A stretch of DNA of 64,000 nucleotides, from contig JABRWF010000005.1 in assembly GCA_018343915.1 (NCBI GenBank), positions 221,001-285,000 on the forward strand, read 5' to 3'. This DNA comes from Agroathelia rolfsii (lineage: Eukaryota; Basidiomycota; Agaricomycetes; Amylocorticiales; Amylocorticiaceae). Every line of letters begins with the position of its first letter. Positions within the stretch are counted from its first letter, which is position 1. The notes beneath the pieces are model-generated. The model was given only the letters and a program-made list of their open reading frames with translations, searched no databases and was not told the DNA's origin. Of this stretch, positions 61,570-64,000 are shown piece by piece. The position numbers and the translations under genes were made by a program.

Positions 61570-64000
61570 ATGGACAATCGGCCTCCTCCATCCACCCAGC
61601 TCAAACGCTCTGAAAATTTCTATAGCCAGGTGCAGGCATTTATCGATGCTGCCGAGGAGGTTGACATCGATGAAGATGTTATTGAAGATATCTTGGACGG
61701 TCTGGATGTTGACACTGAACTCCAGACGGATGACGAGCCAGAAATAGTCGATGATATACCAGAGCACGACGACAGCGGCTCGGAGCTTTCGGAGCTTGAG
61801 AGCGACGTCGTCGAACCTACCTCTAGAGGTTGGTATGCACTTGACTAGGTACAACGCAGCTCACATAATTTTCGACCAGATGAACTAGGAGAGACTTGGA
61901 AGCCTCAGCAAATTCAAGGCATGCTTAGACATCTAAAGGAACATGGTGTGTACCAAAAAAGAAAAAAAAAATCTTGTCAACATAATGTGCTTGACGCCAA
62001 TGACTTGATCCTAGGCATGGGATCCTGGCTACAAGAATATGTCGTAACACGACAGATTCCCATACCAAAACTTCTCCTCGTTTTTGGTATAGACCTTGTA
62101 AGTATTTAGTCTAGAACGTTATGTTGCTTCTGAAAAGGACAAAAAAAACGTCAAGTGCCCCGAGTTGCAAGGTAAAAGGCAAAAGACGCTGTTGTACTTC
62201 TTGCGTGTCGCCTTACATCATCAGTAAGTGGAAGGCCTTTCATTCAATGAGACTTCTTTAACGTGACGTTGGGTCTCAGACTACGCCTTCGAGAGAGACT
62301 AACACAATATAGCACTATTGATGACGCCGTGGATCTCGTACGCAGGTCTCAACGAATTGTCTTCTTGACTGGTGCTGGCATCAGTAAATAGTCTCACGTT
62401 TCATATAACAATATATCCCAGCTGAAAGTTTAACAACATAGGTGTTTCGTGCGGAATTCCCGACTTTCGTTCACGCAATGGATTATATGCTACCCTTCAA
62501 CAAGAGGGAAAATATGACTTGGACGACCCCCAGCAAATGTGAGATGTATCCATGTTTGTAAAGTATCGGAGCTATAACAAGCATTTGCTTAGGTTCGACA
62601 TAAATTACTTTCGGGAGAATCCTGCAGGCACGTACCTAGTTTGTAGTTCGGCACCTATAAGAGACTTGCTGACTGTTGAGGATGTACACAGTATTCTAGT
62701 CAGTCTGGCAGTACACCATGTTTGTTTTGGGAGAAAATTTCCTGACCAATCGTTTTTTGGGGGGCCATTATCGGGGTTGTCACAGCTCTTTTGCGAGGTC
62801 AGTCCTCACTGAAGTTCCTCGGCGAATCACCCTTTAGAATGACAACACCTCGGTCTCCAGTCAGATATACCCCTCCAACTTTGTGCCCTCGCCCTGTCAC
62901 CGTTTTATCAAGGCTGTGGAAGAAAGAGGCAAGGTGAGTTCGACTCACATACAGAGTTAGTCCATCTGTTTTCCCGTAATGAGTCTAATAGGGGTTGTCT
63001 TGTGTAGCTGTTGCGGGTAAGTCCGACATTATAGATCGTCCCTTTGTTTTCTTTTTTTATCCTGAAGCCCGCCTTGCCTCCTCTTGCTCTTTCTGCACTC
63101 GTGAACTCTCGCGCTTGCTGTCACATGCATTACGTTCCCATTCTGGGTCTAGAATTACACGCAGAACATCGACACACTAGAGACGCTAGTCGGCATCCAG
63201 CGCGTGCTGCAGTGTCACGGCTCATTCGCGACAGCAACATGCATCAACTGCCGGCAGACGGTCAAGGGACGAGAAATCGAAGATGATATCATGGCGAAGC
63301 GAGTGGCCCTGTGTAAGGCGTGCAACGGGAACGGGATGGCAGCACACAAGGACGGAAAAGTTGGCGCCGGTGCTAAGAAATCAGGCCAGGGCAAGCAAAA
63401 GAAGAAGAAAAGGAAGAGCAATGCACATCCTTGGGATAGCTCAGGGGAGGACGACGATGAGGATGAAGAGGGGATAAATGTGCCTACCTATCCACCGGGT
63501 GTGATGAAGGTGAGTTTGCGCACACGCGACCCGCTTGCAATCGACCGTCATTTTTTTTGCATATGATCTGATTGCACTTTTTGGGTCCCATTTTCTGGCA
63601 TATTTGACAATTTATGCTGCGGCCTTATAGCCAGACATCACCTTTTTTGGCGAAAAACTTAACGAGGCATTTGAGCAATCATTAAAGGACGACTTTGATA
63701 AGATTGATCTCCTGATTGTCATGGGCACATCGCTCAAGGTGGCGCCGGTGGCTGATGTTGTCTGTACGATGCTTTCCTCTTTCCTGACTGGTCCAAGTCC
63801 TGTTGTTATTCGCCTTCCGCTGACATGTTTGATTACCGGACATACGGCAGGGCACATTCCACATTCCGTTCCGCAGGTGGGCGTCTGACTCCTCTTCGCT
63901 CCATATCTATTGGCTTGTTGTATTTTTTTTTTCTCACATTGCGACCTACCTATAGATACTAATTAACAAAACCCCGGTGAGACATATCAACCCAGATGTA
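61570..64000 (+). CDS. Sir2-family NAD-dependent deacetylase (SIRT1/Hst1 type), partial at right edge
   Basis: Start ATG 61570 (M-D-N-R-P-P-P) with an acidic leader. Pre-catalytic exons have G-E-T-W-K-P-Q-Q-I and P-E-L-Q-G-K-R-Q-K-T. The core includes F-L-T-G-A-G-I-S-V-S-C-G-I-P-D-F-R-S, then F-R-E-N-P-A-V-F-Y-S-F-A-S-Q-I-Y-P, then K-L-L-R-N-Y-T-Q-N-I-D-T-L-E, then Q-C-H-G-S with the catalytic His. Zinc Cys pairs are C-I-N-C and C-K-A-C, with a Lys/Glu-rich insert, then I-V-M-G-T-S-L-K-V-A-P-V and I-N-K. The core needs microexons of 7 nt (62692-62698), 12 nt (62786-62797) and 9 nt (63008-63016). The 3' end lies beyond the window. Histone or other nuclear deacetylation is expected. Confidence 0.9.

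What the first reader, a model, noticed from the sequence alone, without database searches (positions are those of the whole stretch)
62593..63153. Cluster of microexons (7, 12 and 9 nt) in the sirtuin catalytic core
Only by joining 62593-62627, a 7-nt exon TATTCTA (62692-62698), a 12-nt exon CTCTTTTGCGAG (62786-62797) and 62861-62933 does the conserved sirtuin string N-P-A-V-F-Y-S-F-A-S-Q-I-Y-P appear. A 9-nt exon CTGTTGCGG (63008-63016) then supplies L-L-R before N-Y-T-Q-N-I-D. All three have AG before and GT after, and both of the first two use donor GTCAGT. Skipping the 7 and 12 nt exons together shifts the frame, whereas skipping the 9 nt exon would remove three residues in frame. This could be a regulated switch in a deacetylase, or extreme intron gain.
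Basis: partly seen in the sequence, partly recalled or inferred. Interest (0 to 1): 0.75.

Follow-up and report, generated by a model that had tools for sequence, protein, structure and literature searches.

The report
Three ancient microexons in fungal sirtuin
A mushroom-type fungus encodes part of the core of its Sir2/SIRT1-type enzyme in three exons of only 7, 12 and 9 bases; relatives seem to share them and genome annotations often miss them, so they are best read as an old, routinely spliced gene structure and not as a demonstrated switch.

Summary
Spliced alignment that was not told about them recovered all three with three reference proteins in both gene copies (6 of 6). The exact motif AVFYSFASQ came out of 0 of 2000 shuffles at each of four settings, KLLRNY of 2-4. 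The second copy, 87% identical in introns, keeps all three; its two changes inside them are synonymous. One detail was missed: the intron before the 7-nt exon starts with GC.

The structure looks old and shared. Among 168 homologous proteins, 53 are damaged in one or both of these segments; 11 lack precisely LLR and 5 precisely SFAS, while 0 of 17 proteins from short, transcript-like contigs are damaged. The segments form most of a core helix and the start of a core strand. Actin, RAB11-like and RAB5-like genes of the same genome have 5-6-nt exons too. So: constitutive microexons in an intron-dense gene, widely misannotated. A regulated switch is unsupported but not excluded. No RNA data were available.

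The parts
61570..61828 (+). exon 1 of the sirtuin gene (acidic N-terminus); start codon and 3' border not well constrained
   Evidence: manual model; spliced alignments disagree on its end (for example 61806 or 61828)
61880..61945 (+). exon 2
   Evidence: 3' border agreed by the alignments of this copy, 5' border variable
62015..62097 (+). exon 3
62156..62223 (+). exon 4; the AAG acceptor ending at 62155 is preferred over the one ending at 62164 because all 120 homologues of the first search have extra residues here
62280..62383 (+). exon 5 (ends inside GAGIS)
62442..62538 (+). exon 6 (VSCGIPDFRS...)
62593..62627 (+). exon 7, ends ENPA+G
62628..62691 (+). intron 7, GC-AG (GCACGT...CAG), 64 nt
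   Evidence: same donor in the second copy
62692..62698 (+). exon 8, 7-nt microexon TATTCTA; with flanking split codons supplies V-F-Y
   Evidence: identical in the second copy
62699..62785 (+). intron 8, GTCAGT...CAG, 87 nt
62786..62797 (+). exon 9, 12-nt microexon CTCTTTTGCGAG; supplies S-F-A and parts of the flanking Y and S codons
   Evidence: one synonymous change in the second copy
62798..62860 (+). intron 9, GTCAGT...CAG, 63 nt (GTCAGA...TAG in the second copy)
62861..62933 (+). exon 10 (QIYPSNF...ERGK)
62934..63007 (+). intron 10, 74 nt
63008..63016 (+). exon 11, 9-nt microexon CTGTTGCGG = L-L-R, phase 0 on both sides
   Evidence: one synonymous change in the second copy
63017..63152 (+). 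intron 11, 136 nt
63153..63509 (+). exon 12 (NYTQNID, HG, cysteine pairs, lysine-rich insert)
   Evidence: spliced alignments put extra introns of doubtful reality into the insert
63631..63763 (+). exon 13
63851..63876 (+). exon 14, 26 nt
63956..63997 (+). exon 15, 42 nt; exons 16 and 17 lie beyond the window (L009:5089-5330 and 5388-5535)

Best explanation
This is the SIRT1/Sir2-class (Hst1-like) NAD-dependent deacetylase gene of a basidiomycete. It has 17 exons and short introns. Introns lying close together in the most conserved part of the gene leave coding islands of 7, 12 and 9 nt. The spliceosome recognises each short intron as a unit (intron definition, inferred), so such islands can be joined as normal constitutive exons. 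They are needed for the enzyme: the 7+12-nt pair encodes most of a core helix and the 9-nt exon the first three residues of a core strand just before NYTQNID. Splicing errors here mostly give premature stops or a damaged core. Shown: the exons in DNA, their conservation in a second copy, their match to the family, and the hotspot of damaged protein models in relatives. Inferred: inclusion in mRNA, constitutive use, loss of activity on skipping, identical exon borders in the DNA of relatives, and origin before the split of those lineages.
For: Spliced alignment with three relatives recovers all three microexons in both copies, 6 of 6. Exact motifs are rare in shuffles. The second copy (introns 1065 of 1228 columns identical, exons 1641 of 1770) keeps all borders, and its only two changes in the 28 microexon bases are synonymous. 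The joined protein matches Pfam SIR2 at 208 bits and human SIRT1 best among solved structures. In 168 homologues, indels peak at these segments: up to 36 proteins per 7-residue window around VFYSFAS and 18 around LLR, against a mean of 1.7 and a maximum of 9 in the 184 core windows outside three excluded stretches. Exact loss of LLR in 11 and of SFAS in 5 is what missing a 9-nt and a 12-nt exon gives. 26 of the 53 rows flagged in the first segment have glycine straight after ENPx, as reading through a phase-1 G|GT donor would give (my count from the list). 0 of 17 short-contig proteins are damaged. Two actin genes, a RAB11-like and a RAB5-like gene have 5-6-nt exons in the same genome. PMC2897884 says that small exons coding for fewer than 10 amino acids are frequent in basidiomycetes (passage).
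Against: No RNA from this organism was available. No genomic DNA of relatives could be read, so exon borders there are inferred from damaged protein models. By score alone the 7+12 pair is only moderately unlikely under shuffling (165 of 2000 at penalty 14) and is lost at penalty 20. The donors of introns 7-9 are weak for this genome (3rd, 24th and 24th percentile of 72 donors), which would fit inefficient or alternative splicing. That the short contigs are transcripts is an inference from their length. Two of the three homologue searches started from damaged proteins, which enriches damage in the 168.
Confidence: 0.88

Rival explanations
1. Regulated switch: inclusion of one or more microexons is controlled (by nutrient or NAD state, or development), giving an active and an inactive or dominant-negative deacetylase.
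For: The 12- and 9-nt exons can be skipped in frame; 11 listed relatives lack exactly LLR and 5 exactly SFAS, which could in principle be real isoforms; donors of introns 7-9 are weak. A fungal microexon switch has been described in Trichoderma Xlr2 (PMC11121469, abstract and passages).
Against: None of 17 short-contig, transcript-like proteins lacks the segments, against 55 of 151 others by the strict pattern (in the unbiased first set 0 of 15 against 22 of 105, Fisher p 0.039). In-frame skips cut a core helix or core strand. Skipping 7 or 7+12 gives a stop. About half of the rows damaged in the first segment (26 of 53) look like intron read-through, not clean skips, which points to annotation error.
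Confidence: 0.06
2. Splicing rheostat: weak donors around the microexons slow productive splicing, so much of the RNA retains introns 7-11 and is destroyed, linking the amount of Sir2 to splicing capacity.
For: Retention of each of introns 7-11 brings a stop; GC donor and two +3C donors in a row, the same classes in both copies; in plants the introns flanking microexons tend to be spliced late (PMC8831610, abstract and passages).
Against: Retention of 9 of the 11 other introns gives a stop too. Introns 1 and 14 have donors as weak as intron 7 (3rd percentile each), and introns 10 and 11 strong ones. Two loci left out of the donor table also have GTCAGT donors (L030, L036), so these are less rare than the table says. 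No RNA data.
Confidence: 0.04
3. Chance or assembly artefact, or a decaying pseudogene: the small exons are a pattern read into an intron or a broken gene.
For: Score-only shuffles reach the real score in up to 165 of 2000 at one setting.
Against: Exact motif 0 of 2000; both copies fully open over 583 and 588 residues in the model, with synonymous changes in the microexons; homologue hotspot at the same borders.
Confidence: 0.02

Closest known systems
Conserved, widely misannotated plant microexons of 15 nt or less (PMC8831610; abstract and passages seen)
   Same: Tiny coding exons, old gene structure, missed or damaged in reference annotations
   Different: Plants, with RNA-seq proof; the word fungi does not occur in its main text
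Microexons in Phanerochaete chrysosporium P450 genes (PMC1184071; passages seen)
   Same: Basidiomycete, exons coding for 2-10 residues (down to 6 bp), short introns
   Different: Another gene family
Frequent small exons in Laccaria bicolor and other basidiomycetes (PMC2897884; passages seen)
   Same: High intron density and small exons named as a challenge for gene models
   Different: General statement; the passages seen do not treat this gene
Trichoderma Xlr2 switch microexon (PMC11121469; abstract and passages seen)
   Same: Fungal microexon inside a functional domain, missed by the gene model
   Different: Ascomycete (recalled), experimentally alternative; here no sign of alternative use
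Human SIRT1 / yeast Sir2 (PDB 4if6, 2hjh)
   Same: Same enzyme class; KLLRNYTQNID identical to SIRT1
   Different: Fungal sequence with a lysine-rich insert; I did not examine exon structure in those genes

Membership tests
SIRT1/Sir2-class sirtuin | SIR2 domain above the curated cut-off | tested here: met
   208 bits against cut-off 24, full profile 1-180
SIRT1/Sir2-class sirtuin | Closer to SIRT1/Sir2 than to SIRT2, SIRT3 or Hst2 | tested here: met
   best chain of each: SIRT1 290, Sir2 248, SIRT3 182, SIRT2 172, Hst2 129 bits
SIRT1/Sir2-class sirtuin | GAG-S, GIPDFR, QNID, HG and two cysteine pairs present in the joined protein | tested here: met
   read from the translation and its alignment to SIRT1; the role of each motif is recalled
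SIRT1/Sir2-class sirtuin | NAD-dependent deacetylase activity | not testable with these tools
   no assay
Microexon | Internal exon of 15 nt or less with canonical splice sites | tested here: met
   7, 12 and 9 nt, each AG before and GT after
Microexon | Included in mature mRNA of this organism | not testable with these tools
   no RNA data; 17 of 17 transcript-like contigs of relatives carry the encoded residues
Microexon | Conserved in related genomes as separate exons | tested here: inconclusive
   conserved in the second copy; in relatives inferred from 53 of 168 damaged models and exact 3- and 4-residue losses; no DNA read
Regulated switch microexon | Both inclusion and skipping forms in RNA, condition dependent | tested here: inconclusive
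   no skip form among 17 transcript-like proteins, but frame-shifted skips would not show as full proteins

The most novel reading that the evidence does not exclude
The cluster is a conserved splicing checkpoint of Sir2 dosage in mushroom-forming fungi: three consecutive weak donors (GC, GTC, GTC) around two microexons make correct joining slow and sensitive to spliceosome capacity, and failure gives stops or a dead enzyme.
Probability: 0.04. Interest if true: 0.65.

Novelty: new member of a known kind. Interest (0 to 1): 0.4.

Why it matters
It is a clean example of how tiny coding islands persist in intron-dense fungal genes. It also shows a practical problem: between a fifth (22 of 105, first, unbiased search) and a third (53 of 151 over three searches, two of which started from damaged proteins) of the long-contig Sir2/Hst1 protein models examined are damaged in the catalytic core, most simply because these exons are missed. 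Domain studies, structure predictions or expression constructs based on those records would carry a probably dead core. The cluster can serve as a test case for gene finders.

Tried and rejected
Single long intron 62628-62860 without microexons: shifts the frame and stops at residue 274. Alternative GT donor at 62632 instead of the GC donor: adds residues that intact relatives lack, scoring 183 against 202. Alternative 7-nt exon 62704-62710: gives VWH instead of VFY, 192. Introns shared with paralogues: L011 and its copy L012 read SVFYTF...KKLLRSYTQNID without a break, and L013 reads GKLLRVYTQNID without a break; L013 does have a break shortly upstream, between DASVFN and MIAKLA, that I did not resolve, and L014 and L016 were not examined for this. 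Placing the organism: the tree leaves the window's protein on a long unresolved branch, and the ribosomal RNA search did not complete, so the species stays unknown. Plasmid records: no match. Rfam scan of the window: no match at gathering scores.

Papers: microexon+fungi+basidiomycete (9 papers), micro-exon+Agaricomycetes (0), microexons+fungal genomes+introns+gene prediction (1), very short exons+Coprinopsis (0), microexon+sirtuin+fung (1, mouse brain), intron-rich ancestors+fungal+basidiomycete (18), actin gene+mini-exon+basidiomycete (1), sirtuin+Agaricomycetes+exon (0), microexon+plants terms (58, 8 listed). No listed title or abstract start named a microexon in a fungal sirtuin; I saw passages of seven papers and read none in full. 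In two of the seven (PMC4014442, PMC3990503) the only 'microexon' passage is a read-mapper setting.

For the structure prediction 17 of the 120 proteins then held were used, chosen for spread; the model is of a relative, P0001, mean pLDDT 70. The donor table holds 72 donors typed from the output: seven loci were left out as weaker or doubtful (L018, L025, L026, L030, L031, L033, L036) and four introns of L022, L024 and L034; L030 and L036 hold two further GTCAGT donors, so the percentiles of introns 8 and 9 are somewhat too low. Exons of 2, 3 and 12 nt also came out in L030, L022 and L033; I did not check them and do not count them.

Full report
Setting. The window is C5:221001-285000 of an unnamed 37.7-Mb, 8-contig genome. 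Of 6096 homologous proteins the 120 best are listed; those with names are mushroom-forming fungi (Agaricomycetes; taxonomy recalled), at 47-58% identity. The organism is therefore most likely a basidiomycete without a very close relative among the listed proteins. Each of the four sirtuin loci checked has a syntenic second copy, the long aligned stretches being 83-92% identical; for the gene studied here it is on C4. Whether these are two nuclear haplotypes or duplicated chromosomes was not settled, but the second copy serves as an evolutionary replicate.

The observation. I read the sequence and rebuilt the gene. The intron before the 7-nt exon begins with GC (GCACGT), in both copies. Exon 4 most likely starts at 62156, not 62165 as in my first model, because all 120 homologues of the first search have extra residues there and spliced alignment chooses it. 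With that start the protein has 586 residues and no internal stop. The N-terminal exon borders and the lysine-rich insert in exon 12 are less certain, since alignments differ there.

More than chance. I wrote a protein-to-genome spliced aligner that knows nothing of the microexons. With three relatives as reference and both copies as target it returned the 7-, 12- and 9-nt exons each time, 6 of 6, at intron penalty 12. With one relative and this copy it keeps them at penalties 10 and 14 but drops the 7+12 pair at 20. Shuffling the intron interiors 2000 times never gave a best path with the exact peptide AVFYSFASQ, and gave KLLRNY 2-4 times, at each of four penalties. Score alone is less decisive for the 7+12 pair: 0, 18, 62 and 165 of 2000 shuffles reached the real score as the penalty rises from 8 to 14; for the 9-nt exon 2-3 of 2000 did. 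Enumerating GT/GC-AG paths with at most two small internal exons, the stated path is the best of 1011 open in-frame paths here and of 449 in the second copy.

Second copy. Exons agree in 1641 of 1770 aligned columns, introns in 1065 of 1228, gap columns included. All three microexons and their borders are kept; the two changes in their 28 bases (GCG to GCA, CTG to CTA) are synonymous. With so few sites this is supportive, not proof.

Relatives. Three searches gave 168 proteins in all. In the conserved core, indels cluster at the two microexon-coded stretches: up to 36 proteins per seven-residue window around VFYSFAS and 18 around LLR, against a mean of 1.7 and a maximum of 9 in the 184 windows outside the stretches I set aside (the two hotspots with their margins, and the windows starting at 207-216, which hold a natural length difference seen in up to 21 proteins). 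A strict pattern flags 55 of 168; two of them (P0123, P0141) are single-letter departures, leaving 53. Eleven proteins lack exactly LLR and five exactly SFAS, the signature of a missed 9-nt and a missed 12-nt exon. Of the 53 rows flagged in the first segment, 26 have glycine at once after ENPx, 14 of these with K, M, E or V next (my count from the list). Translation through an exon end of G followed by GTAAG, GTATG, GTGAG or GTGT would give this, so the intron probably sits at the same place and phase there, with an ordinary GT donor. By their names the damaged records come from Agaricales, Boletales and Polyporales (orders recalled). Two of the three queries were themselves damaged proteins, so the 168 are enriched for damage; in the first, unbiased set 22 of 120 are damaged (24 flagged minus P0002 and P0088, which only have Q for R).

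Transcript-like sequences. Seventeen proteins come from contigs of 1.8-3.1 kb that encode 460-643 residues in one open frame. For a gene with many introns these are most simply transcripts (inference). None is damaged: 0 of 17 against 55 of 151 by the strict pattern, Fisher p 0.0008; in the unbiased set 0 of 15 against 22 of 105, p 0.039. This suggests that the damaged models are annotation errors and that inclusion is the rule. Frame-shifted skips would not appear as full-length proteins, so the test is blind to those.

What the exons encode. In a model of a relative with the same motif (P0001), residues 243-253 (PAVFYSFASQI) form one helix, and the 7+12-nt pair supplies seven of its eleven residues. 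Residues 276-281 (LLRNYT) form a strand, and the 9-nt exon is its first half. Losing exon 8, or 8 and 9, shifts the frame to a stop at residue 278 or 274; losing exon 9 or 11 removes four or three residues; retaining any of introns 7-11 brings a stop. The product lacking exons 8 and 9 keeps only the first 49 of 180 positions of the SIR2 profile.

Is it special in this genome? Not in kind. In a sample of 20 fetched loci of conserved genes, two actin genes carry a 6-nt exon, a RAB11-like gene a 5-nt exon and a RAB5-like gene a 6-nt exon that complete family residues. Three microexons within 325 bases is denser than in any of these checked genes. A paralogous sirtuin (L011, L012) has no intron at either matching place, and L013 none at the LLR place, so these introns are not common to the whole sirtuin family of this genome.

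Mechanism. I take the introns to be recognised across their own short length (51-136 nt in this gene), so that an exon too small to hold both a 3' and a 5' site complex at once can still be joined, probably step by step. This rests on established knowledge of intron definition in fungi (recalled; the S. pombe paper cited in PMC11121469 was not held). The donors of introns 7-9 are weak (3rd, 24th and 24th percentile of 72 donors), but so are those of introns 1 and 14 (3rd percentile each), while those of introns 10 and 11 are stronger (76th and 100th). That leaves room for slow splicing, which in plants is typical of introns beside microexons (PMC8831610), but does not single out the cluster.

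Literature. Small exons are known in basidiomycetes (PMC1184071 and PMC2897884, passages), and conserved but misannotated microexons are known in plants (PMC8831610, abstract and passages). One fungal switch microexon is known, in Trichoderma (PMC11121469, abstract and passages). A study of an amylase gene in Agaricomycotina describes rapid, dense intron gain there (PMC3584928, passages). My searches listed no title or abstract on microexons in a fungal sirtuin in the held library.

Verdict. It is a new, well-supported example of a known kind, with practical value because many public Sir2 models are wrong in the catalytic core.

Noticed in passing
G000 contigs C1/C2, C4/C5, C8/C2; C6/C7: The four sirtuin loci each occur as two syntenic copies 83-92% identical, with C2 matching both C1 and part of C8, as if a translocation separates two haplotypes or subgenomes; paired family hits suggest the same for C6/C7 (identity not measured), while all 7 tubulin matches lie on C3.
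   Followed up: partly
L019:1948-1953 and L020:2100-2105: 6-nt exon in two actin genes (TCGCTG, TTGCAG) completing GFAGDD.
   Followed up: partly
L034:1303-1307: 5-nt exon GAATT in a RAB11-like gene completing KSNLLSRF.
   Followed up: partly
L027:1832-1837: 6-nt exon TCTCTG in a RAB5-like gene, which also has a GC donor (GCAAGA) after its second exon.
   Followed up: no
L009:5776-7000 (just past the window end): What look like divergent histone H3 and H4 genes lie directly downstream of this deacetylase gene in both copies (read by eye).
   Followed up: no
P0133: Exon 15 of this gene (ILINKTPVRHINPD, 42 nt) is exactly missing in P0133, perhaps a further small-exon annotation error.
   Followed up: no
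L013: In another sirtuin of the genome the frame breaks between DASVFN and MIAKLA, close to the place of the 7- and 12-nt exons; not resolved.
   Followed up: no
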